Assembly (NCBI GenBank): GCA_003563915.1
Contig: PWTE01000008.1
Span: forward strand, 1-60,593
DNA from: Nitriliruptoraceae bacterium
Lineage (GTDB): Bacteria > Actinomycetota > Nitriliruptoria > Nitriliruptorales > Nitriliruptoraceae
DNA: 60,593 nt
Direction of reading: 5' to 3'
Positions 32-58,190 of this stretch are shown one piece after another (position 1 is the stretch's first letter; each line of letters opens with the position of its first letter). The notes beneath the pieces were generated by a model, which was given only the letters and a program-made list of their open reading frames with translations, was not told the DNA's origin and made no database searches. The translations under genes and the position numbers were made by a program.

Positions 32-1033
32 ATGGATGAGGACCGCACGGGTGCCGGCGCGGGCATCGAGGTGCCGACGTACCGCGTGACGCGGGTGCTC
101 GTGCTCGTGGGGTTCGCGATCTGGGCGGGCGGGCTCGCGTTGTGGGAGTGGTCCTGGCCGTGGAGTCTGACCGCGAGCGTGGCCGGTGGCGCGGCGCTGA
201 TGGTCGGTCTGGGCTATCTGGCTCGCGGGGCGCGATCACCGGGCCCGCCGGTCTGGGCCGTGTCGGTCCCGGTGACGCTCTCGCTGGTCCTGATCAGCCT
301 GGGGGTCGGCCAGGCCGACTTCATCGTGCGTGTCGCGCTGGTCGGGTTCGGGTCGCTGGGGTTGCTGGTGGTGTTCCTCCACATCCTCGCCGAACGGACC
401 GCGCTGGAACGCCAGCTGGCGACGCGGCGGCTCGCCGACGAACAGCGCCGGCTCGCCGGTGAGGTCCACGACGTAGTGGGGCACACGCTGTCCGCGTCGA
501 TGTTGCACCTGTCGGCAGCGAGGCTGGCCATCCGCGACGACCCCGATGCGGCGATCGCCTCCCTCACACGGGCCGAGGAGCACGGACGCCGATCGATGGA
601 GGACATCGGCAGCGTCGTGCGCCTACTCCGCGCTGACGAGCCCTCGACCAGCCCACCGTCACCGCAGCTGGACGACCTGCCGGCGCTGATCGAGCGCTTC
701 CGGGCCGCTGGGGCGGACATCTCCGCGTCGGGGGCCGATGCGCTCGGTCACCTGCCCGTGACGGCCGCGCTGACCGTCTACCGGACCGTGCAGGAGGGCC
801 TGACCAACGCCGTGCGCCACGGCACCGCAACGATCCACCTCGATCTCGCCCGCGACCACGAAGGCGTGCATCTGACGATGGAGAACGACCGCAGCGGTCG
901 GCCCGCTCCCGCCTCCTCGGGCAGCGGCCTTGTGGTGATGCGTGAGCGGGTGGCGGCCGTCGGGGGGAGCCTGACGGCCGGACCCACACCCGACGCTGAC
1001 CGCTGGCGTCTCCAGGCCAGGATCCCGACATGA
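32..1033 (+). CDS. NarL-family sensor histidine kinase
   Basis: Membrane sensor kinase of 333 residues that should phosphorylate the response regulator overlapping its 3' end. The first ~125 residues are several hydrophobic segments with only short loops, so it probably senses a membrane or intracellular cue. The dimerisation/phosphoacceptor (HisKA_3) region follows, with the H-box GEVHDVVGHTLSASM and the phosphorylated His at about residue 146. The C-terminal HATPase has an N-box-like stretch (VQEGLTNAVRHG, about 252-263) and a final GSGLVVMRERVAAVGG glycine box. ATG start preceded by a gggag Shine-Dalgarno. The stimulus cannot be read from the sequence. Confidence 0.93.
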   Translation: MDEDRTGAGAGIEVPTYRVTRVLVLVGFAIWAGGLALWEWSWPWSLTASVAGGAALMVGLGYLARGARSPGPPVWAVSVPVTLSLVLISLGVGQADFIVRVALVGFGSLGLLVVFLHILAERTALERQLATRRLADEQRRLAGEVHDVVGHTLSASMLHLSAARLAIRDDPDAAIASLTRAEEHGRRSMEDIGSVVRLLRADEPSTSPPSPQLDDLPALIERFRAAGADISASGADALGHLPVTAALTVYRTVQEGLTNAVRHGTATIHLDLARDHEGVHLTMENDRSGRPAPASSGSGLVVMRERVAAVGGSLTAGPTPDADRWRLQARIPT

Positions 1034-1683
1034 TCCGGGTGCTGCTGGTCGACGATCAACAGGTGATCCGCGAGGGACTACGGAGCCTGATCGCCACGGA
1101 CCGTGCCCTCACCGTCGTCGCCGAGTGCACCGACGGTGACGAGGTCCTCGACCACATCGCCCGCGTCCGGCCCGACGTGATCGTGATGGACATCCGCATG
1201 CGCCGCGTCGACGGTGTCACGGCGACCGCAGCGGTCCGCCAGGTCAACGGCCCGCCGGTGCTGGTGCTGACCACCTTCGATGACGACCAGACCCTGGCCG
1301 CAGCGCTGCGAGCCGGCGCGGCCGGCTTCGTGGTCAAGTCCGCACCGGGCGAGGACATCCTGCGGGCCATCGCCACGGTGGCCGACGGGGACGCCTGGAT
1401 CGATCCGAGCGTGGCCGGCCGGATCCTGGCCGCCTACCGAGACCACACGCCCCCCACGACCGTCGACCTCTCTGCCCTGACCGAGCGCGAGCTCGAGGTC
1501 CTGCGGGCCGTCGGCCGTGGGTTGAACAACCGAGAGGTCGCTGCCGAGCTGTTCATCAGCGAGGCCACGGTCAAGACCCACCTCGGACGGACCCTCACCA
1601 AGCTCCACCTCCGCGACCGCAGCGCCGCCATCGTCTTCGCCCATGACCACGGTCTCGTCGGCGGCACGGGACAGGGACGCTGA
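1030..1683 (+). CDS. LuxR/NarL-type response regulator
   Basis: DNA-binding response regulator, 217 residues, the expected size for NarL/FixJ. The receiver domain (about 1-120) has the acidic pair D8-D9, phosphoacceptor D54 in VIVMD and a conserved Lys in FVVKSA. A LuxR HTH (about 148-207) begins LTERELEVLRAVGRGLNNREVA. The ATG overlaps the kinase stop by 4 bases (ATGA), so the pair is translationally coupled and almost certainly cognate. The target genes are unknown. Confidence 0.95.
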   Translation: MIRVLLVDDQQVIREGLRSLIATDRALTVVAECTDGDEVLDHIARVRPDVIVMDIRMRRVDGVTATAAVRQVNGPPVLVLTTFDDDQTLAAALRAGAAGFVVKSAPGEDILRAIATVADGDAWIDPSVAGRILAAYRDHTPPTTVDLSALTERELEVLRAVGRGLNNREVAAELFISEATVKTHLGRTLTKLHLRDRSAAIVFAHDHGLVGGTGQGR

Positions 1684-2381
1684 CTGACTCATCCTGAGCC
1701 TCCTGACGGACCGCCCGTGTACCGTTCTCAACCCCGCCAAATGCCGCCTGTCGGTGGCCCTCGCGAGCCAGCGGCGGCGGCACCGCCGTCCAAATCCGTC
1801 CAACCGACAATGCTCTCAGCGACCGCTAGTTCGCTCAGCTCGCCGCAATCCGGCCAGTTCGCGTCATACCGCGTACCTGACGATCGTGGTGTCGGCGGTT
1901 CGATCCCGCCCCTGACCACCGTCGGATCCGGGCTCCTAGGACCCTCTGGCAGCCAGAGTTCTGGATTTCGGGTACGAGCCACGAAACGGCCGCTCAGGGC
2001 CCGCCGTCCGAATCCGTCCAGATCTCGGCCGTCCTCGTGACCATCCGAGGTGCAAACGCCCCAGATGCGCCGCTCGACGCCGCCAAGCATGCAACGCGGT
2101 GTCGTCGGCGGCACTCCGCCGCCGAGCGCAATGCACGTTCTTGCGCGCGGAGGCTACTTCGCGCCGGCCCTCGCTCGCTGTGGGCCGACCCGCGCCGGGC
2201 ACCAGACCGTCCCGTTGCCGCATCCGACGTGCGCCTCATCAGGTGGCCTTCGCTCCGTTGACGCATGGGGGTCATCGCGACGGGCGGTGTGCATGGTCGG
2301 TGAGGGAGGCGCGGTGATCATCCGTCGGGTGGTCGGGGATCGTGATGTCGATCTGGAGTCCGCCGGTGGTAGCCGGCAGAC
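1684..2381. other. Non-coding islet flank, about 700 nt
   Basis: No convincing gene is present; open frames here lack a recognisable domain and ribosome site. The stretch holds the first copy of a 133-bp direct repeat (1787-1919), a short echo of the repeat's opening (CCGTCCGAATCCGTCCAG, about 2006-2023) and a GC hairpin near 2103-2122. Minus-strand frames give the phrase GGIEPPTP, which reflects antisense reading of a tRNA T-arm-like sequence, not a protein. Confidence 0.6.
1787..1919. repeat. 133-bp imperfect direct repeat, copy 1
   Basis: Hand alignment with 3147-3279 gives equal length, no gaps and about 18 mismatches (about 86% identity). The first 22 and last 45 bases are identical and changes cluster in the middle. 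The end resembles the 3' half of a tRNA: T-stem GGCGG/CCGCC around the loop TTCGATC, then CCTGACC and a discriminator-like A. The two copies bracket the toxin-antitoxin genes. Confidence 0.8.
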
Positions 2382-2690
2382 CTACCGAAGGGGCTCGCCC
2401 GGGGGCCGGTCGGCGTCGGACCTGGCTGCGTGCAGGACCCGGAGCACGTCGATCCGGTCCGGCTGGAGACGGTAGAAGATCACATACGGGAACCCTCGCA
2501 CGACCGCGCGGTGGACTTCGCGGTAGCCAGCGACGAGCGGGGCGCTGCGTGGGAACTCGGTCAGCCGTGCGAACAGCTCGTCCAGGGCCACCACGAACTG
2601 ATCGCCCAACCCGTCCGCCAAGCCTTGGTAGTGCGCGTGCGCCTCGGTCAGATCGGCGACCGCGGCGGGCCGCAGCACCAGGGCCGTCAC
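2382..2690 (-). CDS. RelE/ParE-family toxin
   Basis: Small toxin of a type II module, 102 residues from the chosen GTG start. The fold signature is visible: LRPAAVADLTEAHAHYQGL (helix 1), a central helix with LDELFARLTEFPRSAPL, then the strands VHRAVVRGFPYVIFY and IDVLRVLHAARS. RelE members cleave ribosome-bound mRNA and ParE members poison gyrase; the sequence alone does not decide. The GTG at 2690 overlaps the antitoxin stop by 4 bases (GTGA), the usual coupling. An in-frame upstream ATG at 2723 would give a longer overlap and is less likely. Confidence 0.85.
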   Translation of the reverse strand: MTALVLRPAAVADLTEAHAHYQGLADGLGDQFVVALDELFARLTEFPRSAPLVAGYREVHRAVVRGFPYVIFYRLQPDRIDVLRVLHAARSDADRPPGEPLR

Positions 2691-2938
2691 TCGGACAGCA
2701 ACCCGCCTCGAACCTCCGACCAAGGCACGCCAGCATCCGGCTGCTGCTCGACCTCATCAAGCGCCTCATCGAGCAGACGGCGCTCGTCCTCGGTCGGCTC
2801 GTACACCGGCTCGCCGAAGTAGCGCCGCAGCGCCTCCTGGAACACCTCGGAGCGGGACCGATGCTCGATCTCCCGCAACCGCTCGACCATGTCGAACAGC
2901 TCCTCTGGCAAGGTCACCGCGATCTTCCGAACGGCCAC
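2687..2938 (-). CDS. CopG/RHH-family antitoxin
   Basis: Antitoxin, 83 residues. The N-terminal ribbon-helix-helix (about 3-45) shows a basic beta strand (KIAVTLPEEL), then helices with VERLREIE and SRSEVFQEALRRYF. The acidic C-terminal tail (about 46-83, many Glu/Asp) should wrap and neutralise the toxin. GTG start with GGGAGG upstream. It is the first gene of the pair, and a palindrome just upstream suggests autorepression. Confidence 0.85.
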   Translation of the reverse strand: MAVRKIAVTLPEELFDMVERLREIEHRSRSEVFQEALRRYFGEPVYEPTEDERRLLDEALDEVEQQPDAGVPWSEVRGGLLSE

Positions 2939-2954
2939 GACACGTCCTCCCGCA

Positions 2955-2973
2955 GGTATGACTACATCATACC
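2955..2973 (-). promoter_or_regulatory. Toxin-antitoxin operator overlapping a -10 box
   Basis: Perfect inverted repeat GGTATGA - 5 nt - TCATACC, 17-35 bases upstream of the antitoxin GTG. On the minus strand it contains TATGAT (plus 2966-2971), a good -10 hexamer, so an RHH dimer bound here would block transcription. No strong -35 is visible. Confidence 0.6.
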
Positions 2974-3496
2974 GACGTGAGGCCTAGCCGTGGGGCCACC
3001 CCCGACCGCCGCGCTGCAACCAGACGACGGACCCTCGGCCCGCAGTCACTGCGATGCTGACAGTGGCCGCTGTCCGTAGCTCGCCACCGGCCCCACCGGA
3101 TGCCACCCGAGGGTGGCCCTGGCAGCGCCCGGCCCAACGGCACCTCCGTCCAAATCCGTCCAACCGACTACTGCCTCTGCGACGGTCGATTCGCTCAGTT
3201 CGGCGCAATCCGGCCAGTTCGTGCCAAACCTCGCACCTGACGATCGTGGTGTCGGCGGTTCGATCCCGCCCCTGACCACTCCCCCGACCGGCCTCCCAGA
3301 AGGCTCGGCGAGGCCGACTTGTCTGTCGGGCTGGGGTTGGTTACCCAGGGCCCAAGCCCAGTCGTGCCATATCCGAGCCCCGCAGATCTGCACGCTGCGG
3401 CACAGCGCCACGTCGCCCGCCACGGTGGCAACCGGCGTGGAAGCGGCTGCCATTCGCCAACTGAAGGCGGCTGCTCGATGAGTGTGGTCGGAGCCC
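2974..3496. other. Non-coding islet flank with repeat copy 2
   Basis: About 520 nt without a supported gene between the toxin-antitoxin promoter and the end of the PKD protein gene. It contains the second 133-bp repeat (3147-3279). I see no terminator or other feature in the remaining sequence. Confidence 0.5.
3147..3279. repeat. 133-bp imperfect direct repeat, copy 2
   Basis: Second copy, exactly 1,360 bases from the first and in the same orientation. The tRNA-like end (T-arm at about 3255-3271) is unchanged. Divergence between copies lies in the central part only, so they are not a very recent duplication unless the ends are under constraint. Confidence 0.8.
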
Positions 3497-6400
3497 TTAG
3501 CCCGCTCGGTCGATGCTCGGACGCCGCCGACGCGTGAAGTCACACTGGAGACGGATCCCCAGCAACAGTGTGAGCAACCCCACGCCGATAAGGATCCCGA
3601 TCGGTCCCCCCGTCATCGGTAGCTGGCGCGTGCTCGTATCTGAGCCGTCGGTCGCTGCGTTCCGCGTCCGATCCAAGACCTTGATGACGCCTGGCGCAGA
3701 CACCCCGCCGTCTGCATCGGCAGTCGCACCATCGGGGATGGTCACAGAATCGGTGGAGCCGGATTCGGGTCCGTCATCCGCTGGAACGTCGCCGTCGGGG
3801 TTCGGCTGGTGATCACCGTCCGGAACGGATGGCGGGTCTGACTCGTCTTCGCCTGGCGGGCTGGTGGTCGCCTCACCGACAACCACCGCGACACTGGCGC
3901 ACCCTTGGCCGCCGTCCTCATCGGAGGCGCACACCTCGATCAGGTAGGCGCCAGCGCTGTCGTAGGTGTGCTCGAACACGACGGAACTCACCTCGTTGGC
4001 GGTCGCGACACCGAGAGCCACGCTGCCGGACCCCACGTCCGAGTGCTCCACCACCGTGCCGTCACCCCAGTCGACCGTTGCGTGTAGGACGTCATCAACA
4101 CCGGGGTCGGTCACCTCGACCTCGAGTTCGACGCGAAGGTCATCGCTCACGGCGGCCAACGTCACCTGTGGCGGGAGGTTCACCACCTGGAGGTCGGTCA
4201 GCCGCAGCGTCACGTCGTCGATGCCGTCGCTGAGGACGAGGGTCACCTGATAGGTACCGTCGTCGCGGTAGGTGTGCCCGACCTCGAACGGACCCGGGGC
4301 GGCGAAGTCGATGCGCTCGTCGGCGCCGTCGCCCCAGTCGACCGACAGTCGCCACCCGGCATGGGCGTCGGGATCGGCGAAGCTACCCGTGAGGACGAAC
4401 GGGGTGCCCTCGGCGAGGTCGGGCAGGCTCACGCCGCCGAAGACCGGCGGGGTGTTGGTGAGCTCGGTCACCGTCACCGCGGAGGTCGCACATACCTCCG
4501 CCCCTCCGTCGTCAGCCACACACAGGCGCACGTCGTAGGTTCCGGTCGCGATGTAGCTGGCCTGCAACGAGACGGTGCCGGCACCGCCATCGGTCGTCAC
4601 CACCGCGTCCCTGAGCGGCGTGCCGTCACCCAGGTCCACGGTCGCCGTGTGCTGGTCGAGCACGCCCGGATCGGTGAACGCGCCCGTCACGGTGAGAACC
4701 TCGCGGTCGACCGTCGCCGACCACGTCGCGATCGTCGGAGCCGCGTTGGTGACCACGACCTCGACCGAAGCGCTCCCGCACCGCGCCCCCTGACAGACCT
4801 CGAAGGACGCGACGAAGGTTCCGTCATCGACGTAGCGGTGCGCGGCGTCGGCCGAACCGCTCACACCATCGATGGCATCGTCGTCGAGCACGACATCCAC
4901 CGCCTCGGAGGGAGTGCCGTCGGACCATCGGGCGATCAGCGCGTAGTCGTCGGACGTCGCCCCGTCGGGCGGCTGAGGATCATCGAACGTCACGGTGAAT
5001 GTCCGTTCATCACCCTCGACGAGCGACTCGACCGCGTCCACGCTGACCTCGATCGCCTGCGTCACGACCGTGTAGGTCGCCGTGTCACAGCCGACACCAT
5101 CCGCGTCGTCGGTGACGCAGATCTCGACGAGGTACGTCCCTTCCTCGAGGTAGACGGTGGAGGCCTGCACGGTGCCGGCGCCATCGGTGAACGTGACATC
5201 GGCCGGTTGCGGGCCGGTGCCGTCATCCCAATCGACGGTCGCCTGGTGGACGTCCTCGACGCCCGGGTCGGCGAAGGTCGCCTCGTCGAGGTTCACCACC
5301 GGCCCAACGGTGCGGTCCCGTCCGGCATCAACCGACGGAGAGACGTTGACGACCTCGACGTCCACCGAGGTGCTGTCGCACCGACCGGTGTCGTCGCACA
5401 GGGTCACGATGGCGCCGAAGGTCGGACCGACCGCCGGTTCGTTGCGGTAGCGGTGCGTCGCGGTGAACGTGCCGGCAGCCTGGTCCACGTCACCGGCGAA
5501 CGGGGTCGAGCCGTCACCGGGGTCGAGGACCACGGTGTGCACGCCGCCCTCGCCGGCGTCGGTGAACGATCCTGCGAACGTCACGATGTCACCCTCGTCG
5601 AACCGGCGACCGTCGTCCGGGGCCTCAAGCGTCAGCGCCGGTGGTGTCCCGAGCACGGCCACGGCGACGGTGGCCCCGTCGCAGCCGACCGCGCCGCCGT
5701 TGTCGGTGGCACACACCTCGATCTCGTACTGCCCCGTCGCCGCGTAGGCGTGGCTGGCCGTCAGCGACCCGCCGCCCGGGCCCCCGACCACCACGACGTC
5801 CTGCAGGTCGGATCCGTCACCCCAGTCGACGCTCGCCGTGTGGGTGTCCGCGGTCCCCGGGTCCTCGATCACGGCGTCCACCGTCACCAGCGCACCGTCG
5901 ACGTCGACGTCGGCCGCGACCGTGGGCGGAGCGTTGTCGACGTCGACGTCGGTGGTCGCCGTCACGCACAACGGCTCCTGCAGACCGTCGAAGCCGACGT
6001 CGCAGATCTCGAACGTGACCGGGTAGACGCCGTCATCGACGAACGTGCGTGCGGCCAGGCCGGCGCCGAACACCCCACCATCCTGGAAGGTGACGGATTC
6101 CGGCCCGTCACCCCAGTCGACGGTGATCGTGTGGGTCGTGTCCGTGTCGTCGTCCGTGAAGCCGACCCCCACCTCGACCAGATCTCCCTCCACACCGGTG
6201 ACGCCGTCCGTCACGAGTGGCTGCGGGGTGCTGCGGCCCGGGACGACCTCCACCTCGAGGTCGTCGCACCCGACCCCGCCGTCGTCATCCGTCACGCACA
6301 CCTCGACGGTGTACGTGCCCGCGGTGGCGTAGGTGTGCGACCCCGTGGCGATCCCGCTGCCCTTGGATCCGTCCACGATCGCGGCGACGGGATCCGACCC

Positions 6401-9400
6401 GTCGCCCCAGTCGATGGTCGCCGTGTGGGTGTCCAGGATCCCCGGATCGGCGTAGGACGCCGCGATCTGGACGGGGCCGGTGACCCGCTGATCGGGGCCG
6501 GCGTCGACGATGGGATCGGCGTTGATGACCTCGACCAGCAACGGCCCACAGCCGGTGACGTCGTTGTCGACGTCGCGAACGCACACGGTGATCTCGTAGT
6601 CGCCGTCGTCGGCGTAGGTGTGCTCGGCGGATGTCTGCCACCGGCCGGTCTCGAGCGGGGTGATGGAACCCTCCGCGGCTGGCGAGCCGTCGCCGAAGTC
6701 GAAGCGGACCTCGTGCGACGAGTTGATCGACGCGTCCGCGAACGTCGTCGTGAACGTCTGCTCCGTGCCCTCGACCGCGGCGAAGACGGGTGCCGGGTTG
6801 CTGGCGGTGTAGCGGACGAGTGGTTGCGACATGGTCTGTGCGGCGATCCGCCCCTGAGGGAACGGGTCGTCGGCCGGCGCGTCGATCGCGGCGATCTCCA
6901 CACCGTCGATCGACAACAGCAGCCGCTCGGGCGTGTAGGTGATGTCGAGGAGGTACATCCCGGCGCGGTACAGGGGCTGGGCCGCGCGGGCGGGCCAGCC
7001 GAGGTACTGGGGTAGCCCCTGCGAGGTTCCGAGCCCCGGCGGGAGTTCGTAGTTCCCCAGCAGTTCCACCCCGGCGTCGTCGTTGCACCGCGGGTTGGGG
7101 TCGGCAGCGAGGTCCAGCGTGGTGACGCCGAGGAACTCCTCGATGGTGGGGACCCCTCGGATGCGGGAGATGATCACCGCATCGCGCGGATTGTCGACGA
7201 CCGCGTCGCACTCGGGCCGCCCCGTCCGCTGCCCGGGCGGCTTCTGGTGGCCGAACTCGATCGCGATCCAGTCGGCGTCGTCATCGCGCAGTTCACCGGG
7301 CTGGACGCCGAGCGCGAAGCCGTACCAATCGTTGTCGGCGTTGAAGCTCCCGACACCCATGGTGATGCGACCAGGTGCGTCGAGTTCGAAGTCGCTGACG
7401 ACCCAGTGGGGGTAGTTGGGGTTGTTCTCCTGACGGATCGCCGCCCCGAAGGGCTGGACGTACCAGCGCGCGTCGACGGGTGGGATGAACTCCGGGCGCG
7501 GCGTGTCGATCGTCCACGCGGCCACGTCAGCCGGGTTGACGACCGGTTCGGGGGCGAGTTGGTGGGCTTCGAAGAGGACGGCCGTGGTCCCGTAGTCGAG
7601 GCAGCCCGTCAGGCCTTCGGAGGTGGATCCCTCGGGTGCGGTGATGCACACACGGGGGCGGATGCGCCCGACGGTGTCGATCGACCGACTCGTCTCGATC
7701 GTGGTCTGCGCCGCAGTGGTGCCGGCGACCTGCATCGAGGAACTGGTGCCGTCGCCCCACTCGAAGGTGACGTCGAACGTCTCGCCGGTGACCCGGTTCG
7801 GGTGCGACCAGACGACACTGAAGAACAGCTCGTCGTTCTGGTGGGCACCGGACGTCGCCAGCGGCCCATCGAACTGCGGGGTGGAGAAGAAGCTGATCAC
7901 CGGCGCCTGCGGAACGATCGACGACGAGCTGGTGTCGGGGTTGCAGTCGCGGTCCGGCACCGTCGACCCGGGGTTCACGAACCGATCGGCGTCGTCGCAG
8001 TCCAGCGGCGTGCGCCATCCGTCGCCGTCGTCGTCCGCCCCGAAGCTGGTCACCATGAACGGCTGGGCCACGACGTTGCCCGCGGCGTCGGTCACCACGG
8101 CGTCGAACAGCCAGGTGACACCCTCGTCGACGGGTGCGGCCCCGGTGTAGGTCGCCGTCGCGCCGCTGGTCACGATCTGCTCGTCGACCTGCGTGCCGTC
8201 CCGGTACCAGGTGACGGTCAGGTCGGCGCCTTCGGGGTCGGCCACGGTGATCGACAGTTCGAAGTCGCGGTCGTCGTCGGGCTCGAGTTCCACGAGTGCC
8301 TTGGCCACGGCCGAAGTGGGGTACACGGTCGCCGGGGAGACGCTGACGGCCTCGAACGTCGGTGGCAGGTCGCTTGCCGTCACCTCGACCTCGGCGACGC
8401 CCAGCGACGAGCCGCCGTCGACGTCGGTGACCTGCAGGGCGACGAGGAAGCGGCCGGGTTCGGCGAACGTCACCGATGGCGTCGCGCCGGCGGTGTCGTA
8501 GGCGCCATCGAGGGTTGTGTCCCACGCGTAGCTGGCGAGGCCGACCGGACCGGAGGAGCCGGTGGCGTCGAGGGTGATCGGCACGCCGGTGGATGCGGCG
8601 TAGGGCCCGCCGGCGTCGGCGGTCGGCAGGGGGCGGTCGAGGCCCTCCGCGGCGAGGTCATCGAGGGACCGCTCGAGATCAGCGCGCAGGTCGACGAAAC
8701 CGGACGCCTGGGCTTCGACGTCGTCGGCGATCGCGTCGAAGAGGTTCGGGAAGGTGTTGGTGTTGCTGCTGATCCGAGAGCGGAGATCGTTGGCGGGTGC
8801 GAGGAGTTCGAGCTGCGCCTTGAGGACGTCCTCGGGGATGCCCCGGTTCATCGACACGCGACGGTTCACGGCGTTGGTGGTGTAGGCACTCCCACTCTGG
8901 CTGAAGTTCAGGAGCGCGAGGATGTCGTTGTGCAGCATCCACTGGGTCCACTGGGGGTCGGCGCCCGAGCGGAACGCCGCCGCGACCGCGCGATGGTCGT
9001 CGGCAGCCTGCGGCAGGCGTGTCTGGAGCAGGTCGAGCAGTGCCAACGCATCGCGGGCGTGTGTGGCCATCCAATCACCCGCGCCGACCTGTGCAGCACC
9101 CTGGTGGCGCTCGACCGCCGTCACCAGCGCATCGACGAGTGCCGCGTCGACCGCGGTGTTGCGGGCGGCATCGTGGATCGCGACCTCGAGAGCCTGGTCG
9201 GACGTCGCGGGCCCCACCCGCGAGGCAACGAGCGAGGCGTGGGACCGGAACAGCGGGTCCGGCGGGTCCGCAGCGATCCGAGCCTGCGCACGAGACTTGT
9301 TGAGTAGCGCGGTGGAGACGGCTGGCCTGGGGTCGGGGAGCGGGCTCTGGCCGGCTGCAACCGCTGCGCCCTGCGCGACCGCGATCGACACGTCGGTCGG

Positions 9401-10099
9401 GACCAGGAAGCCAGCGTTGCCGGCGACCTTGCCCTTGCTGACCGCCTTGAGCGCCGCGTCCCATGCCAACGACAGGGCCCGGTAGTCGCTGCCGAGCCGA
9501 CGCGCGCCGTCCTTGTCGATCGGAGGGATGGTCGCCGGTTCCGCTCCCAGCGGGATCACCACGCGGAAGGCCTCCGAGATGATCGCATCCTCGGGGTCGA
9601 CGAACCGGTCCTGGCACTCGTCGATCACGATGTCGTAGACACCGGGCGCGAAGCGACCACCCGGTCCGGCGTAGCCGAGCAGCTGCTGGATGAACCCGCC
9701 TCCGACGCCACCGAACACGACCAGCGGCGGGCCGGTCAGCGCACTGCCCGCGGTCGCCGAACCAGCCGGCACGGCGTAGACGTCCGCCCACGGCTGGAAC
9801 ACGTCGTCGATGCCGATGCCGGTCCGGTGGGGACGCTTCTTGCAGTCCGGGAAGAACCCGACGACCCCGTCGAGCCGGATCGGCTGGTTCGGTCCGTAGA
9901 CGACCCGGTCGGGGATCGCCTGGCCGATCGGCACCCACGACTGGGCGTTCGCGTGCGGCAGCGTGCTGACCGGTTGGGTGAGTGGCAGAAGGGCACCCAG
10001 GACGGCAAGCAGCACCACGACCGTCACCACCCGTCGCAACTGATGTGGCCCGATGAACGTCGATGGTGACGAGGCCGGAGGATGAGAAGCAAGGGTCAT
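3497..10099 (-). CDS. Giant secreted PKD-repeat surface protein with LPMTG anchor
   Basis: Cell-surface protein of about 2,200 residues. The chosen ATG begins MTLASHPP and is followed by a basic stretch, a hydrophobic core (VVTVVVLLAVLGALLPL) and an AxA site (ANAQS), i.e. a signal peptide. Next come a globular N-region without recognised family (about 55-470), a first PKD domain (about 480-570), a calcium-binding stretch with DxDGDG and DCDDAD (about 690), a lectin-like segment (NDWYGFALG, about 910) and roughly ten tandem PKD-type domains carrying variants of VDWGDGS. A Pro/Asp-rich spacer leads to LPMTG (about 2160), a hydrophobic helix and an Arg-rich tail: a sortase substrate. PKD arrays usually serve adhesion or as spacers. 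No sortase lies in this window. Confidence 0.88.
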   Translation of the reverse strand: MTLASHPPASSPSTFIGPHQLRRVVTVVVLLAVLGALLPLTQPVSTLPHANAQSWVPIGQAIPDRVVYGPNQPIRLDGVVGFFPDCKKRPHRTGIGIDDVFQPWADVYAVPAGSATAGSALTGPPLVVFGGVGGGFIQQLLGYAGPGGRFAPGVYDIVIDECQDRFVDPEDAIISEAFRVVIPLGAEPATIPPIDKDGARRLGSDYRALSLAWDAALKAVSKGKVAGNAGFLVPTDVSIAVAQGAAVAAGQSPLPDPRPAVSTALLNKSRAQARIAADPPDPLFRSHASLVASRVGPATSDQALEVAIHDAARNTAVDAALVDALVTAVERHQGAAQVGAGDWMATHARDALALLDLLQTRLPQAADDHRAVAAAFRSGADPQWTQWMLHNDILALLNFSQSGSAYTTNAVNRRVSMNRGIPEDVLKAQLELLAPANDLRSRISSNTNTFPNLFDAIADDVEAQASGFVDLRADLERSLDDLAAEGLDRPLPTADAGGPYAASTGVPITLDATGSSGPVGLASYAWDTTLDGAYDTAGATPSVTFAEPGRFLVALQVTDVDGGSSLGVAEVEVTASDLPPTFEAVSVSPATVYPTSAVAKALVELEPDDDRDFELSITVADPEGADLTVTWYRDGTQVDEQIVTSGATATYTGAAPVDEGVTWLFDAVVTDAAGNVVAQPFMVTSFGADDDGDGWRTPLDCDDADRFVNPGSTVPDRDCNPDTSSSSIVPQAPVISFFSTPQFDGPLATSGAHQNDELFFSVVWSHPNRVTGETFDVTFEWGDGTSSSMQVAGTTAAQTTIETSRSIDTVGRIRPRVCITAPEGSTSEGLTGCLDYGTTAVLFEAHQLAPEPVVNPADVAAWTIDTPRPEFIPPVDARWYVQPFGAAIRQENNPNYPHWVVSDFELDAPGRITMGVGSFNADNDWYGFALGVQPGELRDDDADWIAIEFGHQKPPGQRTGRPECDAVVDNPRDAVIISRIRGVPTIEEFLGVTTLDLAADPNPRCNDDAGVELLGNYELPPGLGTSQGLPQYLGWPARAAQPLYRAGMYLLDITYTPERLLLSIDGVEIAAIDAPADDPFPQGRIAAQTMSQPLVRYTASNPAPVFAAVEGTEQTFTTTFADASINSSHEVRFDFGDGSPAAEGSITPLETGRWQTSAEHTYADDGDYEITVCVRDVDNDVTGCGPLLVEVINADPIVDAGPDQRVTGPVQIAASYADPGILDTHTATIDWGDGSDPVAAIVDGSKGSGIATGSHTYATAGTYTVEVCVTDDDGGVGCDDLEVEVVPGRSTPQPLVTDGVTGVEGDLVEVGVGFTDDDTDTTHTITVDWGDGPESVTFQDGGVFGAGLAARTFVDDGVYPVTFEICDVGFDGLQEPLCVTATTDVDVDNAPPTVAADVDVDGALVTVDAVIEDPGTADTHTASVDWGDGSDLQDVVVVGGPGGGSLTASHAYAATGQYEIEVCATDNGGAVGCDGATVAVAVLGTPPALTLEAPDDGRRFDEGDIVTFAGSFTDAGEGGVHTVVLDPGDGSTPFAGDVDQAAGTFTATHRYRNEPAVGPTFGAIVTLCDDTGRCDSTSVDVEVVNVSPSVDAGRDRTVGPVVNLDEATFADPGVEDVHQATVDWDDGTGPQPADVTFTDGAGTVQASTVYLEEGTYLVEICVTDDADGVGCDTATYTVVTQAIEVSVDAVESLVEGDERTFTVTFDDPQPPDGATSDDYALIARWSDGTPSEAVDVVLDDDAIDGVSGSADAAHRYVDDGTFVASFEVCQGARCGSASVEVVVTNAAPTIATWSATVDREVLTVTGAFTDPGVLDQHTATVDLGDGTPLRDAVVTTDGGAGTVSLQASYIATGTYDVRLCVADDGGAEVCATSAVTVTELTNTPPVFGGVSLPDLAEGTPFVLTGSFADPDAHAGWRLSVDWGDGADERIDFAAPGPFEVGHTYRDDGTYQVTLVLSDGIDDVTLRLTDLQVVNLPPQVTLAAVSDDLRVELEVEVTDPGVDDVLHATVDWGDGTVVEHSDVGSGSVALGVATANEVSSVVFEHTYDSAGAYLIEVCASDEDGGQGCASVAVVVGEATTSPPGEDESDPPSVPDGDHQPNPDGDVPADDGPESGSTDSVTIPDGATADADGGVSAPGVIKVLDRTRNAATDGSDTSTRQLPMTGGPIGILIGVGLLTLLLGIRLQCDFTRRRRPSIDRAG

Positions 10100-13300: not shown

Positions 13301-13546
13301 GGCGACCTCACCGATGCCGTGGACGAACTGCAAGCCTCCATCGAACTCGACCAGACCGATCAGACCCGGGTCCGCCGACTGGAACGCATCCTCCGTGAAC
13401 TCGAGCGGCACGTCGAGGCCGACGGGCTGCTCGCCGACACCGTGGCGCGCCTACATGCCCTCGGTGTCGACACGCCGACACCCCGCGGCGATTCGTGGGC
13501 GACTGGGGCTCACGGAACGAGTGATGTAGATGCGCCACATAGGTGA
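10310..13546 (+). CDS. AAA ATPase / TPR / C-terminal BTAD transcriptional regulator
   Basis: Regulator of 1,078 residues. The N-terminal STAND-like ATPase opens MVGRAREFAVA, with Walker A GEPGIGKTTLL (about 40) and Walker B VLLLDDLQW (about 120). A long Ala/Arg/Glu-rich alpha-helical TPR-like region follows (about 350-830). Near residue 845 a winged-helix DNA-binding domain starts (FELRILGPLELLHEG), followed by a BTAD domain (about 935-1075). SARP-family proteins normally carry the DNA-binding and BTAD domains at the N-terminus, so the order is reversed here. The ATG is supported by an adjacent G-rich ribosome site and by the family-like start. Position suggests control of the divergent PKD gene, but the target is inferred. 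Confidence 0.85.
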   Translation: MSGRTARSMVGRAREFAVATALLDQLDGRPGGGVLFIVGEPGIGKTTLLAAIQHEARGRSHLVRSSRCLSMATPLPLEPVVDLLLPDDNTQPSSGPAPPSRERYADALRALRVRASTGPTVLLLDDLQWSDHATLAFLQAAITREEPGAVLWILAARPGEVATTMTDTLHRLPHATTLTVAGLEVDDVADLARTIADPPGDDVVAAIHHRTGGNPFLALELLRAAADPRPDRRVLPAGVRDAVAVRRRDLGEPADTVLGWCAVLPDPIHLEWLGDLCGLDALASVATLVDGAFLTSDSGGEGVRFVHDLLRDAVLDALPGPTRRAMHARVAEALRTASPELRAVQLRAAGRAREAAGLYVELADAALLGGAPADASDRAREAGSLARDAGDRPLETAALGLEVLAKLRLGEQAAAHELARRVRRRLRDRPASERARFLARYAMACWDDTADLDRAQDAVAELAPLEAALDGADAAEALLARAHITNRAGRSGDALPVAREAVRLARAVSTDAPTDAALLPRALGHLGLLEGQAGSITAAVEALEEAVDLAQDHGLPAEEGYAWLARSFLAQHTGDEDAHEQLARRGLEVAGLPAAVEAMLRANAGVGAVWRGDVSGGLLELEQALEVGALAGRATRNRVAVTLVHALARHGEVDQADALLAEIDAPPGSWEGTRVAYARALVAEEGGDDATARVDYLAGCADGDNPSSVWSLAGVVRTSCALGDVAEARQALTGLEQRAARWPVVAWLLTASQGEVADLSGDRARAAERFAAAAAARGNRGDQLRLQTRAAIAQRDAPATLAALTALSEVVGSSATARLRARATAAGLMADSDAPRFELRILGPLELLHEGAQVKVPTGRPVELLGLLALTGPQPTARVIDALWPHAPEQSGRQRLRQVRYRLRQVAPDLVVRGDDDRIALGEGTQIDLDRFETLATRPVAPDDDTERSARAALALVRGEVLEASELELDDLEATRERVRVLRRGLHDQLGRLAVARGDLTDAVDELQASIELDQTDQTRVRRLERILRELERHVEADGLLADTVARLHALGVDTPTPRGDSWATGAHGTSDVDAPHR

Positions 13547-13562
13547 GGAGACCGAACACGCA

Positions 13563-13802
13563 ATGGCGCGGTTCGAGCAGCTCGCCGATGGGCTCGATCG
13601 CGACGTCGCCAAGGTCTTGGTCACCGACGACCTTCGCGACGTCACCGAGGCCGCGAAGGCCGTCCCTGACGACGAAGCACGGTTGCGGGAGTCCGTCGAG
13701 CTCACCGGGACTCACGGCAGGTCGTGGAACCAGATCGCGGTCGCCCTCGGTGTCTCGCCCCAAGCAGCGCGCCAGCGGTCCGCCGACAAGGTGCGAACCT
13801 GA
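13563..13802 (+). CDS. Small helix-turn-helix protein
   Basis: 79 residues. The C-terminal half carries a clear HTH (SWNQIAVALGVSPQAARQRS), similar to small sigma-like or AsnC-like DNA-binding modules; the N-half is charged and helical. The ATG has GAGGAG about 12 bases upstream. An alternative ATG at 13530 would overlap the preceding gene by 17 bases. It probably shares a transcript with the BTAD regulator. Its function is unknown. Confidence 0.65.
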   Translation: MARFEQLADGLDRDVAKVLVTDDLRDVTEAAKAVPDDEARLRESVELTGTHGRSWNQIAVALGVSPQAARQRSADKVRT

Positions 13803-35018: not shown

Positions 35019-37796
35019 TCAGCGTGTCACATCGTCGGTGTCGCGGGGCTGCCCGAAGAAGGGGATCCGTTCGAAGTCCAGCGCGTAGCGCTCGATCGCC
35101 TTGGTCAACACCTCGCGGTCGACCTTGCCGAGCTTCACCAGCTCGGCCAAGACGCAGTAGGCGATCGACTCGGCATCGATGCGGTGGAACCGCCGGAGTG
35201 CCTCGCGCGTGTCGGAGCGCCCGAACCCGTCGGTGCCGAGCACCGCGAAGGGGCCGGGGATCCAGTCGGCGATCTGGAACGGGGTCGCCCGCATCCAGTC
35301 GCTCACGGCGACGTAGGGGCCCTCAGTGTCCTCGAGGATGCGGGTCACCAGCGGTATCCGCGGATCGGACTGCGGGTTCGTCCGGTTCCACGATTCGACG
35401 GCGACACCGTCGCGCAGCAGACGGTTCCACCCGGGCGCGGACCACACGTCGGCCGAGACGTTCCAATCCTCCGCGAGCAGCTCCTGCGCCCGCAGGGCCT
35501 CGCTGATGATCGTGCCGGACGACAGCAGGTGCGCCGACAGCTCCCCGCCGGGCCCCTCCTGGTAGCGGTACAGACCGTCGACGATCTGCTGGTCCTCGAC
35601 GTGATCGGGCATCGGCGGCTGGACGACCGGCTCGTTGTACACCGTGAGGTAGTAGACGACGTCCTCCCCGGCGTCGCTGTCCTCGGTGCCCGCCGCGTCC
35701 CGCGGGTACATCCGTTCCAGGCCGTGCTCGACCAGCACGGCGATCTCGTAGGCGAACGACGGGTCGTAGGCCTCGATGCCCGGGTTCGACTGGGCCATGA
35801 GCAGCGAGTGGCGGTCCTGGTGTTGCAGGCCTTCGCCGTTCAGCGTGGTGCCGCCAGCGGTCGCACCGATCAGGAAACCCCGGCTCCGCTGATCGGCCGC
35901 GGACCAGATCGAGTCGGCGGTCCGCTGGAAGCCGAACATCGAGTAGAAGATGTACAGCGGGATCATCGGCTCACCGTGGGTGGCGTAGCTGGTCCCGGCC
36001 GCGTGGAAGGTCCCTATCGACCCGGCCTCGGTGATCCCCTCGTGGATGATCTGGCCGTCCGTGGCCTGCTTGTAGGACAGCAGCAGGTCCTGGTCGACCG
36101 GCTCGTAGTTCTGGCCGAGGTGGTCGTAGATCTTCGCGGTCGGGAACCACGAGTCCATCCCGAAGGTGCGTGCCTCGTCGGGGATGATCGGCACGATCCG
36201 CTTCCCGATGCCCTTGGAGCGCAGCAGGTCCTTGAACAGGCGCACCAGCGCCATCGTCGTGGCGACCTCCTGGTTTCCCGAGCCTTCCTTCAGAGCACCG
36301 AAGGCGTCCTTCTCCGGCAGCTCGGGCACCGTGAAGGACACCCGCCGCTCCGGTACGGAGCCGCCGAGCTCGTCCCTCCGCGCCTTGAGGTACTGGATCT
36401 CATCGGAGTCCTCGTCGGGGAGGACGTAGGGAGGCAGGTCCCCTTCGAGCTTGTCGTCGGAGACGTCCAGGCCGAGGTTGTCCCGGAAGGTCTTCAGCGC
36501 CTCGGACGACAGCTTCTTCATCTGGTGCACGGCGTTGCGGGCCTCGAAGTCCGGCCCCAGCGTCCATCCCTTGACCGTCTGTGCGAGGATCACCGTCGGA
36601 GCCCCGGAGGTCGAGGTCGCAGCCTGGAACGCGGCGTAGACCTTGTTGTAGTCGTGCCCGCCCCGACGCAGCTTCGCGATGTCATCGTCGCCGAGGTTCT
36701 CCACGAGCTTCTTCAGTCGCGGGTCGACCCCGAAGAAGTCCTCACGGATGAAGTCGCCACCCTTGGCGGTGTAGGTCTGCATCTGGCCGTCCGGCACCTC
36801 GTTCATGCGCCGGATCAGCAACCCGTCGACATCGCGCTCCAACAGTGGGTCCCACTCGCGTCCCCAGATCACCTTGATGACGTTCCACCCGGCGCCGCGG
36901 AAGACCCCCTCGAGTTCCTGGATGATCTTGCCGTTGCCACGGACCGGACCGTCGAGCTGCTGCAGGTTGCAGTTGATGACGAACGTGAGGTTGTCGAGCC
37001 CCTCCCGACTGGCCACGCTCAACGCGCCCAAGGTCTCGGGCTCGGCCGTCTCGCCGTCGCCGCCGAAGAACCACACGTGTTGATCCGAGGTGTCCTTGAA
37101 GCCGCGGTTGTGCAGGTAGCGGTTGAAGCGGGCCTGGTAGATCGCGTGCAGGGGCCCCAGACCCATCGACACGGTCGGGAACTCCCAGAAGTCGGGCATC
37201 AACCGCGGGTGCGGGTAGGACGACAGCCCGCCCGGCTCCACCTCGGAGCGGAACCGGTCGAGTTGCTCCTCGGTGAGCCGCCTCTCGACGAACGCGCGGG
37301 CGTAGATGCCCGGCGAGGCGTGTCCCTGGAAGAACACCTGGTCACCGCCACCCGCGTGGTCCTTGCCGCGGAAGAAGTGGTTGAACCCCACCTCGTAGAG
37401 CGAGGCGGCGGAAGCGTAGGAGCCGATGTGGCCCCCGGTCCCACGCTCCACGTTGGTCCGGTGCACCATCACCGCCGCGTTCCAGCGGATGTGTTGACGG
37501 ATGCGGCGCTCGATCTCCTCGTCGCCGGGGAACCGTGGCTCACGTTCCGGCGGGATCGAGTTGATGTAGTCGGTCGTCGTCAGCGACGGGATGCCGATGT
37601 TGCGCTGCCGCGCGCGCTCGAGCAGCTTCAGCAGCAGGAACCGTCCGCGACCCTTGCCGATCTCCTCCACCACGGCATCGAAGGACTCGAGCCACTCCCG
37701 CGTCTCGGTCTCATCGACATCCGGGTACTGCGCAGGCAACCCGTCGGTGATGATCGGGTTCTCCGCGTAGTGCTGCTGTTCACGTATCTCGGCCAC
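35019..37796 (-). CDS. aceE: Pyruvate dehydrogenase E1, homodimeric type
   Basis: 925 residues, close to the family's usual length of about 890-930. Decarboxylates pyruvate and reductively acetylates the E2 lipoyl group. TPP site: [17 protein letters not shown] with FVINCNLQ completing the GDG...N motif; other signatures include [20 protein letters not shown] and [16 protein letters not shown] at 37796 is chosen because GGAGG sits just upstream and the protein then begins like other AceE proteins. A second, heterotetrameric E1 lies at 16.2-18.2 kb. Its E2 and E3 partners are not here. Confidence 0.95.
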
Positions 37797-56135: not shown

Positions 56136-57218
56136 ATGACCACCACCGATCCCGCGCCCCAGATGGGCAGCAACGTCCAGGACCGCCACATCGCGTCCTT
56201 CGACGCGCTCCCTCGGCCACGCGAGCTGCGTGAGGAGTACCCGGCGGACGGTGACCGCTACGCGACGGTGGTGCGCGCTCGGGACGAGGTCGCTGCGGCC
56301 CTGCGCGGTCAGGACGGACGGATGGCCGTGGTGGTCGGGCCGTGCTCGATCCACGACCCCGAGCTGGCGCTCGAGTACGCCGCCGGGCTACGGGACCTCG
56401 CCGACGAGCACCGCGACGAGCTGATCGTGATCATGCGGACCTACTTCGAGAAGCCGCGGACCTCGATCGGTTGGAAGGGGCTGATCTACGACCCGTCCCT
56501 GGACGGTAGCTACGACGCGATGCAGGGGTTGCGGGCTGCCCGCAAGGTCCTGATCGACGTGCTCGGGCTGGGCCTGCCATGCGCGGTCGAGGTGCTCGAC
56601 ACCATCACCCCGCAGTACTACTCGGACCTGGTGTCGTGGGCCGCCATCGGCGCGCGCACGGTCGAGAGCCAGGTCCACCGCCAGCTCGCCTCCGGGCTGT
56701 CGATGCCGGTCGGCTTCAAGAACGCCACCGACGGCCGGATCGGGGTCGCGATCAACGCGCTGTCGGCCTCGGTCGAACCTCACGCGTTCTTCGGTGTCGA
56801 CGACGACGGGGCGAGCGCGGTGATCCGCACCAACGGCAACCCCGACGCCCACCTCGTGCTGCGAGGCGGTGACGGTGGCCCGAACTACGCCCGGGAGCAC
56901 GTCGCAGACGCGACGAAGCAGGCGCGGGCAGTCACCGGCCATGCCCGACCGGTCATCGTGGACTGCTCCCACGGCAACTCGAACAAGGATCACCGGCAGC
57001 AGCGGGCGGTCGTCGAGGATCTGCTCGCACAGTGGAGCGAGGACGACCACGGGCTCCTCGGCCTGATGCTGGAGAGCAACCTCCAACCTGGCCGTCAGGA
57101 CTGGGAGCCGCACCGACCGCTCGAACGTGGCGTGTCGATCACCGACGCCTGCATCGGCTGGGACGAGACCGTCGAGTTGCTCGGCCGGTGCGCGGAGACG
57201 GTCGCCGCGACCCGCTGA
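56136..57218 (+). CDS. aroG: DAHP synthase, class I (AroG type)
   Basis: 360 residues. Condenses PEP with erythrose-4-phosphate in the first step of the shikimate pathway. Motifs: VVGPCSIHDPELAL, MRTYFEKPRTSIGWKG, SQVHRQLASGLSMPVGFKN and DCSHGNSNKDH with metal ligands. The ATG at 56136 has GAGG upstream; another ATG lies 21 bases earlier without a ribosome site. Most actinobacteria use the plant-like class II enzyme, so the class I type is notable. Confidence 0.94.
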   Translation: MTTTDPAPQMGSNVQDRHIASFDALPRPRELREEYPADGDRYATVVRARDEVAAALRGQDGRMAVVVGPCSIHDPELALEYAAGLRDLADEHRDELIVIMRTYFEKPRTSIGWKGLIYDPSLDGSYDAMQGLRAARKVLIDVLGLGLPCAVEVLDTITPQYYSDLVSWAAIGARTVESQVHRQLASGLSMPVGFKNATDGRIGVAINALSASVEPHAFFGVDDDGASAVIRTNGNPDAHLVLRGGDGGPNYAREHVADATKQARAVTGHARPVIVDCSHGNSNKDHRQQRAVVEDLLAQWSEDDHGLLGLMLESNLQPGRQDWEPHRPLERGVSITDACIGWDETVELLGRCAETVAATR

Positions 57219-57275
57219 CGGGAGGTTGCGGAGGATCCGTCCGGATAGACGGACGAAGCCTCCGGATCCTCACCG
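57214..57275. repeat. 62-bp direct repeat, copy 1
   Basis: 60 of 62 bases match 58129-58190. Contains an outer inverted repeat GAGGATCCG / CGGATCCTC and an inner one CGTCC / GGACG, so it can form a hairpin. It starts at the aroG stop codon. With copy 2 it brackets the Uma2 gene. Confidence 0.85.
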
Positions 57276-57308: not shown

Positions 57309-57884
57309 TCAGCCGTGCCTGAGTCGACGTAGCGTCACGGACACGCCGCATGCGTCCAGCGGATCATCGGGTCCGTGCCGGGTGATGGAGCCGTAACCAC
57401 CGGGCGACGGATCCGTGTGCACGTGCACCGCATCGGCGTGCACGTCGATGACCCAGTACTCGGGCACGCCAGCCGCCGCGTAGATCCTCGCTTTGCGGCC
57501 CAGGTCGAGCCGAACCGTCTCGTGGGCGACCTCGATGACCAGGATCGCGCGTTCGGGATGCCGCTCACGTGACTCGTCCGTCGGCACCACGGCCACGTCA
57601 GGTTCCGGCTCCGAGTACTCGCCCGCCGCGAGCGGCAGCTGCACCCGCACCCGGTAGCGCCCGACCAGCGCAGGCATGAGGAGCTCGTTGAGACGCTCGA
57701 CGATGCCCGCGTGCGGGGGCTTCTGCGGGCTCATCTCGACGAGCTCCCCCTCGAGCAGTTGGATGCGGTCGTCAGGACCGAACACGCCTTGCTCGACGAG
57801 CACGTCGTACTCGGCCCGGCGCAGCGGACGGACGCGGACAGCGGACATGTCGTCAACGCTAGGCAAGGGTTCGGTCACGTCCAC
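57309..57884 (-). CDS. Uma2-family restriction-endonuclease-like protein
   Basis: 191 residues, PD-(D/E)xK nuclease fold. Catalytic core: SEPEPDVAVVP, AILVIEVAHET and GRKARIYAAAGVPEYWVID. N-terminal RRAEYDVLVEQGVF and LLEGELVEMSPQ are typical of Uma2 proteins, which are abundant in cyanobacteria and actinobacteria and of unknown role, often mobile. GTG start at 57884; an ATG at 57848 is an alternative. Flanked by 62-bp direct repeats. Confidence 0.85.
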   Translation of the reverse strand: MDVTEPLPSVDDMSAVRVRPLRRAEYDVLVEQGVFGPDDRIQLLEGELVEMSPQKPPHAGIVERLNELLMPALVGRYRVRVQLPLAAGEYSEPEPDVAVVPTDESRERHPERAILVIEVAHETVRLDLGRKARIYAAAGVPEYWVIDVHADAVHVHTDPSPGGYGSITRHGPDDPLDACGVSVTLRRLRHG

Positions 57885-57954: not shown

Positions 57955-58128
57955 TCAGGGATGCCAGGTCACACAGGTCGTGTCGAGCTCGCGGAGTGGG
58001 GTGCGCTGGTCCTCGGCGACCGAGCCGAGGTAGATCATGCCCACGAGTTGTTCGTCGTGGCCGAGTCCGAGCTGGGCCAACACGCCGGGGTGCTCCGCGA
58101 GCCAGCCCGTGCCCGGTGGGCCTTGGCC
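57955..58128 (-). pseudogene. Nitroreductase C-terminal remnant
   Basis: Minus-strand reading gives about 57 residues ending HPGVLAQLGLGHDEQLVG and MIYLGSVAEDQ, the tail of the nitroreductase family, then a stop at 57955. No N-terminal part exists: its upstream end abuts repeat copy 2, so the gene was probably cut by a rearrangement at the repeat. Confidence 0.5.
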
Positions 58129-58190
58129 GCTGACGGGAGGTTTCGGAGGATCGGTCCGGATAGACGGACGAAGCCTCCGGATCCTCACCG
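58129..58190. repeat. 62-bp direct repeat, copy 2
   Basis: Same orientation as copy 1, 915 bases downstream. The two differences (G/T and C/G) fall in the left half, one weakening the outer inverted repeat. Its right end is 10 bases from the IdeR gene stop. Confidence 0.85.

What the first reader, a model, noticed from the sequence alone, without database searches (positions are those of the whole stretch)
1787..3279. Toxin-antitoxin module bracketed by 133-bp direct repeats
Seen: two repeats of identical length 1,360 bases apart, about 86% identical, with the CopG/RelE pair between them. Inference: the cassette is an inserted islet that used or created these repeats; recombination between them would excise the module as a circle and cause toxin release after loss of the antitoxin gene.
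Basis: partly seen in the sequence, partly recalled or inferred. Interest (0 to 1): 0.6.

Follow-up and report, generated by a model that had tools for sequence, protein, structure and literature searches.

The report
Toxin-antitoxin cassette in tRNA-targeted island
The two repeats around this toxin-antitoxin pair are attachment sites copied partly from a phenylalanine tRNA gene, so the pair is a 1.36-kb mobile cassette in a tandem island of such cassettes: a miniature and partly unusual version of a known kind of mobile element.

Summary
In detail: window 1787-1919 and 3147-3279 match at 115/133 positions, 1,360 bp apart, around a CopG/ParE pair. The repeats are composite. Their 3' 43 bp are identical to each other and nearly identical (41-42 of 44) to the genome's own tRNA-Phe gene from the anticodon loop to the 3' end. 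Their 5' 90 bp are an attP arm with a paired motif, CCGTCCAAATCCGTCCA, that recurs inside the cassette and beside integrase genes that follow tRNA-Phe in relatives.

The same TA module sits directly behind an intact tRNA-Phe gene in another genus. A sister cassette is 93.5% identical across two genera, with homology starting exactly at the tRNA core. One relative has one-repeat and two-repeat versions of one site.

So this is an att-bounded mini-element in a tandem tRNA-Phe island, probably at its distal end. A sister array in the same genome uses tRNA-Arg. Unusual: several sister cassettes encode, right after the core, a catalytically headless integrase or an arm-domain/excisionase-like fusion.

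No matching full-length integrase was found in this 92%-complete genome, so mobilisation in trans is inferred. Toxin release on loss is untested; a second near-identical CopG exists.

The parts
32..1683 (+). histidine kinase (32-1033) and response regulator (1030-1683); probably cargo of the preceding element
   Evidence: Pfam HisKA_3, Response_reg/GerE; similarity to G009 (86% DNA) stops at 1686, right after the stop codon. That it is cargo is inference.
1787..1876 (+). P arm of att copy 1 (right end of the preceding element), with paired arm-type motif CCGTCCAAATCCGTCCA at 1786-1802
   Evidence: 80% identical to copy 2; motif positions; family alignment
1877..1920 (+). att core copy 1: 3' half of tRNA-Phe(GAA) from the anticodon loop
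   Evidence: 42/44 to the tRNA-Phe gene on C304
1921..2092 (+). P' arm (left end of the TA element), with arm-type pair CCGTCCGAATCCGTCCA at 2004-2020
   Evidence: 86% identical to DNA directly behind tRNA-Phe in G023; motif
2093..2367 (.). 276-bp stretch of the element without match in relatives
   Evidence: blastn against all related loci
2382..2690 (-). ParE-family toxin, 102 aa
   Evidence: PF05016, E 5e-12; dN/dS about 0.2-0.3 in most pairs
2687..2938 (-). CopG/ribbon-helix-helix antitoxin, 83 aa
   Evidence: PF01402, E 1.5e-5; dN/dS 0.03-0.24
2955..2973 (.). inverted repeat GGTATGACTACATCATACC upstream of copG, probable operator
   Evidence: conserved or nearly so in five other copies; operator role inferred
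3147..3236 (+). P arm of att copy 2 (right end of the TA element), arm-type pair at 3146-3162
3237..3280 (+). att core copy 2: 3' half of tRNA-Phe, end of the array
   Evidence: 43/43 to core 1 over 3237-3279, 41/44 to the tRNA-Phe gene
3283..3330 (+). hairpin right after core 2, possibly the original tRNA-Phe terminator
   Evidence: -25 kcal/mol, z -2.0, weak; stronger hairpins stand at this place in G007 and G018
35019..37796 (-). aceE (pyruvate dehydrogenase E1), marker of the chromosomal region that lies beyond tRNA-Phe in relatives

Best explanation
The 1,360 bp from the core at 1877 to the core at 3237 are one non-autonomous integrative element: P' arm, ParE/CopG pair, P arm. It sits in tandem behind the remnant of another element, in an island that grew at the tRNA-Phe gene by site-specific accretion. 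The repeats are attachment sites: a 43-bp core that copies the 3' half of tRNA-Phe, preceded by a ~90-bp P arm with arm-type integrase sites. A tyrosine integrase of the tRNA-Phe-targeting family known from relatives, acting in trans, would recombine core with core. It would excise the TA pair as a circle with a complete attP (P-core-P'), leave a single site, and insert the circle into another copy of the core. The TA pair is under purifying selection and plausibly stabilises the element. Shown here: site anatomy, tRNA identity, conserved arm motifs, same-family elements exactly at tRNA-Phe, sharing of a cassette between genera, and a natural one-repeat/two-repeat pair for a sister cassette. 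Inferred: mobilisation in trans, the crossover position, the addiction role, and that the window holds the distal end of the tRNA-Phe island (about 80%).
For: Core equals tRNA-Phe 3' half. The arm-type motif pair is shared by both arms of the element and by the DNA between tRNA-Phe and the integrase gene in G025 and G017; where the motif differs (G004, G033) it differs in both arms together. G007: the TA element lies exactly between the intact tRNA-Phe gene and one att copy. G012 vs G007: a cassette 93.5% identical over 2,114 bp, homology starting at the anticodon-loop base, while aceE of the window genome is 80-82% identical to those of G007, G012, G023 and G034 and CopG-ParE 87-91%. G016: one-repeat and two-repeat haplotypes. 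Sister array at tRNA-Arg in the same genome. Synteny tRNA-Phe to aceE, same orientation as repeat 2 to aceE.
Against: No full-length integrase of this type in the 92%-complete window genome at E<=1e-50, and its other tyrosine recombinases are only distantly similar. tRNA-Phe is not on the window contig, and the 32 kb between repeat 2 and aceE are not syntenic with relatives. No exact empty site for the window locus itself. The G016 contigs may come from two co-assembled strains.
Confidence: 0.85

Rival explanations
1. Dead relic: the array was built by an integrase no longer present; the sites now recombine only by occasional homologous recombination, and the TA pair persists for its own sake.
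For: No matching integrase found in the genome; the window cassette has no recombination gene; att copies elsewhere are decayed (C147 4821-4959, C248).
Against: Cores at 1877 and 3237 are 43/43 identical while the P arms have diverged to 80%; cassettes are shared between genera at 93.5%; contigs of G016 differ by one cassette.
Confidence: 0.3
2. Ectopic insertion: the array sits at a secondary, non-tRNA site, not at the end of the tRNA-Phe island.
For: No tRNA-Phe on the contig; two-component genes on the left; nothing but aceE and its right-hand neighbours is syntenic.
Against: Orientation and order relative to aceE match the tRNA-Phe locus of most relatives; the array begins 1.7 kb from a contig end; the full tRNA 3' half is present at the outer end, as expected when attB was a tRNA gene.
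Confidence: 0.18
3. MITE-like or other dispersed repeat that happens to contain tRNA sequence and flank a TA pair by chance.
For: Several copies per genome and many relatives.
Against: Copies lie with cassettes or tRNA islands, the homology boundary falls on the tRNA core, and the arm motifs match those next to integrase genes.
Confidence: 0.03
4. Simple segmental duplication of a tRNA 3' fragment with no mobility.
For: Direct repeats alone could arise so.
Against: Same unit at different places in several genera.
Confidence: 0.02

Closest known systems
Tandem ssrA-specific genomic islands of Dehalococcoides (PMC3146451)
   Same: Tandem islands behind an RNA gene, each bounded by a direct repeat of its 3' end; about half lack an integration module (15 of 31).
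   Different: Serine recombinase, 20-bp repeat, islands of ~10 kb with dehalogenase cargo; here tyrosine integrase, 43-bp core with a conserved 90-bp P arm, 1.4-5 kb TA/defence cassettes.
CIME (cis-mobilisable element) of ICE/IME tandems (PMC5704250)
   Same: Keeps att sites, lost integration and transfer genes, accretes with other elements at the 3' end of a target gene.
   Different: Much smaller, many per genome, and several sister cassettes keep integrase-derived genes without a catalytic domain.
tRNA-integrated genomic islands (Islander class, PMC4383910)
   Same: Integration at the 3' part of a tRNA gene that is regenerated, with the displaced fragment marking the far end.
   Different: The window element has no integrase of its own and is one unit of an array.
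TA pairs that stabilise integrated elements (SXT mosAT, PMC2654960; HipAB composite island, PMC8978831)
   Same: A TA pair carried by an integrated element that can in principle excise.
   Different: Stabilisation was shown there by experiment; here it is inferred, and the TA pair is almost the whole element.
Integron gene cassettes
   Same: Small one-module cassettes in arrays, mobilised in trans, rich in TA pairs (analogy; own knowledge).
   Different: Different site structure, different recombinase subfamily, insertion next to tRNA genes.

Membership tests
tDNA-integrated genomic island element | intact tRNA gene at one end and a displaced 3' fragment at the other | tested here: met
   Met for the same TA element in G007; in the window only the fragments are on the contig, tRNA-Phe is on C304
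tDNA-integrated genomic island element | cognate tyrosine integrase encoded in the element | tested here: not met
   None in the window; none of this type in the genome at E<=1e-50; present in G004, G017, G025, G033
CIME | att sites at both ends, no integration or transfer genes | tested here: met
   Cores at 1877 and 3237, arms on both sides; no recombinase gene between them
CIME | mobilised with, or by, a functional element | not testable with these tools
   Needs an excision/integration assay or reads spanning the junction
Integron cassette | integron integrase (IntI) partner | tested here: not met
   The tRNA-Phe integrase of G025 scores 21.7 bits against the integron integrase model TIGR02249 (cutoff 265)
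Integron cassette | attC site that recombines as a folded single strand | not tested
   The site has lambda-type P arm - core - P' arm layout instead
Type II TA, ParE/CopG (RelE/ParE superfamily) | overlapping RHH antitoxin and ParE toxin genes | tested here: met
   PF01402 and PF05016 above cutoffs, 4-bp overlap
Type II TA, ParE/CopG (RelE/ParE superfamily) | toxicity and neutralisation | not testable with these tools
   Needs expression in a laboratory strain
Tycheposon | tRNA-bounded cargo element of 4-200 kb with a tyrosine recombinase | tested here: not met
   1.36 kb and no recombinase; definition taken second-hand from PMC10872708

The most novel reading that the evidence does not exclude
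Nitriliruptoraceae host a cassette-array system, analogous to integrons but built on tRNA attachment sites. TA/defence cassettes encode, right behind the att core, a catalytically headless integrase (arm and core-binding domains, tRNA-Arg branch) or an integrase arm domain fused to an excisionase-type helix-turn-helix (tRNA-Phe branch). These proteins would occupy arm sites and steer a trans-acting integrase toward excision, or block it, making the cassettes regulated satellites of the autonomous tRNA elements rather than dead relics.
Probability: 0.3. Interest if true: 0.75.

Novelty: new variant of a known kind. Interest (0 to 1): 0.5.

Why it matters
It gives a clean small-scale example of how TA and defence genes accumulate in chromosomes: as site-specific cassettes that stack behind tRNA genes and appear to move between genera. 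If the headless integrases and arm/excisionase fusions are functional, they are a direct test case for how non-autonomous elements control a helper's recombinase. It also explains one class of 'TA module between direct repeats', and of spurious antisense GGIEPPT-type ORFs.

Tried and rejected
An Rfam scan of 1500-3700 found no family above its gathering score; ARAGORN finds no complete tRNA at the repeats. The repeat had no match in the plasmid or phage collections, and an exact pattern scan of genome contigs gave none. The G025 integrase had no relative in viral contigs, and the G017 integrase had only distant (about 21-26% identity in the listed hits) matches in phages and plasmids; the arm/excisionase protein had none in viral contigs, and the headless integrase only 26-41% partial ones. 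Empty-site search for the window locus: the left flank in G009 diverges at 1686, and the right-flank DNA had only short weak matches in 34 relatives, so no exact empty site. I first took the window array for an ectopic (non-tRNA) insertion; aceE synteny made the distal end of the tRNA-Phe island more likely. MITE, duplication and integron readings were considered and dropped.

Full report
OBSERVATION. The repeats are real and far beyond chance: 115 of 133 positions match between 1787-1919 and 3147-3279, spacing 1,360, while the next best 133-mer in the window matches 60 of 133. They enclose an antitoxin/toxin pair, RHH_1/CopG 2687-2938 and ParE 2382-2690, both on the minus strand with a 4-bp overlap.

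WHAT THE REPEATS ARE. Conservation along the repeat is stepwise: 80% over 90 bp, then 100% over 43 bp, then it collapses. The invariant 43 bp copy the 3' half of tRNA-Phe(GAA): 41-42 of 44 positions agree with the intact gene on contig C304, starting at the anticodon loop. The 90 bp in front hold a paired motif, CCGTCCAAATCCGTCCA; a near copy (CCGTCCGAATCCGTCCA) occurs on the other side of the core inside the TA cassette (2004-2020). This is the layout of a tyrosine-integrase attachment site, P arm - core - P' arm (established knowledge of lambda-type integrases). In relatives with a full integrase gene right behind tRNA-Phe, the same kind of paired motif stands between tRNA and integrase (G025, G017). 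Where the motif is different it differs at both ends together: GTGACCACT in G004 and GTGACAAAT in G033, the latter on separate contigs. I take this as good evidence that the 'body' of the repeat is an integrase arm.

THE ELEMENT. From core to core the element is 1,360 bp: left end (1877-2092) shared with DNA directly behind tRNA-Phe in G023 (86%) and partly in G007; 276 bp without match; then ParE, CopG, probable operator and P arm (2368-3291) shared with the right end of the G007 element (85%). In G007 (another genus) the ParE/CopG element sits between the intact tRNA-Phe gene and one att copy: the canonical integrated form. In G012 (a third genus) a sister cassette 93.5% identical over 2,114 bp to that of G007 lies behind another att copy, and the similarity begins at the anticodon loop. 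The conserved aceE gene of the window genome is 80-82% identical in DNA to those of G007, G012, G023 and G034, while the window CopG-ParE DNA is 87-91% identical to theirs, so horizontal movement is likely; aceE of G007 and G012 were not compared with each other. In G016 two contigs carry the same flank, one with a single repeat (C134) and one with two copies and an AlbA/Schlafen-type gene between them (C378; left copy decayed): 92.7% identity from repeat b onward and 79% on the left. They may be two co-assembled strains.

WHERE IT SITS. tRNA-Phe is not on the window contig. But in most relatives tRNA-Phe is followed by aceE in the opposite orientation, at 0.02 to 129 kb (G028, G005, G008, G004, G014, G029, G025; exception G010), and the window has repeat 2 followed by aceE in that same orientation at 31.7 kb (G018 26 kb, G026 1.4 kb from their att copies). 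So the window most likely starts inside the tRNA-Phe island, with repeat 2 as its distal end. Further att copies of the same genome lie on C147 (two, around an AAA/DUF4143 gene and next to a second CopG) and C248 (one, decayed), both short contigs.

A SISTER ARRAY AND THE HEADLESS INTEGRASES. A profile of the repeat found a second branch in the same genome. At tRNA-Arg(ACG) on C342, two att copies with a tRNA-Arg 3' half follow the intact tRNA-Arg gene in tandem. Cargo there and on C133 includes VapBC, FitA-like/PIN, ParDE, Fic, Schlafen/AlbA and AAA/DUF4143 proteins; several cassette proteins match PADLOC phage-defence candidates. Directly after the tRNA-Arg gene and after both att copies stands an integrase homologue of about 109-152 aa that ends before the catalytic domain; the 144-aa one matches only the Phage_int_M central domain in Pfam. 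Its predicted structure (pLDDT 86) finds full-length lambda integrase as best PDB match, E 4e-6. In the tRNA-Phe branch the same position holds a ~165-aa protein in G012 and on C248; similar genes occur in G016, G027 and G023 (the last partial). It has an integrase-like N-terminus (43% identity over 54 aa) and an excisionase-family helix-turn-helix (TIGR01764, 52.9 bits, cutoff 28.8; structure, pLDDT 68; BldC and a mycobacteriophage Xis among the nearest folds, none at E<=0.001). dN/dS is 0.42-0.52, below one but not strong. The window cassette has no such gene.

DISTRIBUTION. Copies with full P arm plus core (E<=1e-30) were found in 7 of 35 genomes of the host's family, in six genera (G000, G007, G012, G016, G018, G026, G034), with weaker or partial copies in G023, G027 and G033. 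None was found outside the family in a sample of 396 genomes of the phylum, where matches are short and centred on the tRNA part. Named relatives with the closest CopG are mostly Nitriliruptoraceae MAGs. Same-genus genomes G001 (92% complete) and G002 (80%) gave no such repeat and no CopG.

MECHANISM. Most likely: core-by-core recombination by a tRNA-Phe-specific tyrosine integrase supplied in trans, with the TA pair as cargo that favours retention. Shown: anatomy, motif sharing, a shared unit at different sites, the one-repeat state. Inferred: the enzyme, the crossover point within the 43 bp, current activity. The idea of toxin release after excision is untested, and the genome carries another CopG, 96% identical over the 53 residues present (contig end), that might protect.

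KNOWN OR NEW. Tandem islands behind an RNA gene, with half of them lacking an integration module, are known (Dehalococcoides ssrA islands, PMC3146451; CIMEs, PMC5704250; Islander, PMC4383910), and TA pairs on such elements are known (PMC2654960, PMC8978831). Less usual here are the miniature size, the predominance of TA/defence cargo in the cassettes examined, and the recurrent integrase fragments without catalytic domain. I found no paper describing the latter, in a library that lacks many journals. I rate it a new variant of a known kind.

Noticed in passing
window 57212-57275 and 58127-58190: 64-bp direct repeats, 97% identical, 915 bp apart, bracket an ORF at 57309-57884(-) that looks like a Uma2-type nuclease (by eye, not scanned): another possible islet.
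   Followed up: no
window 13530-13802: Encodes a 90-aa homologue (78% over 63 aa) of a cassette-borne protein of G012 (L062 1578-1850): possible former cassette cargo outside the array.
   Followed up: partly
window 1728-2114(-) and 3046-3543(-): ORFs antisense to the repeats read VRGGIEPPTPRSSG: artefacts of translating the complement of a tRNA 3' half, likely to be annotated as hypothetical proteins.
   Followed up: partly
window 3497-10030(-): Giant 2,177-aa PKD-repeat protein with a C-terminal LPxTG-like anchor directly beside the array.
   Followed up: no
L066 1295-2551 (G023): The DNA behind tRNA-Phe in G023 carries a bacterial serpin (PF00079, 256 bits) as apparent cargo.
   Followed up: no
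L065 4978-5863 (G026): A TOTE conflict-system primase gene lies next to the att copy of G026 near aceE.
   Followed up: no
L086 and L087 (G009): Two copies of the window's HK-RR pair on two contigs, one with a broken arm/excisionase gene upstream: these genes may be cassette cargo.
   Followed up: partly
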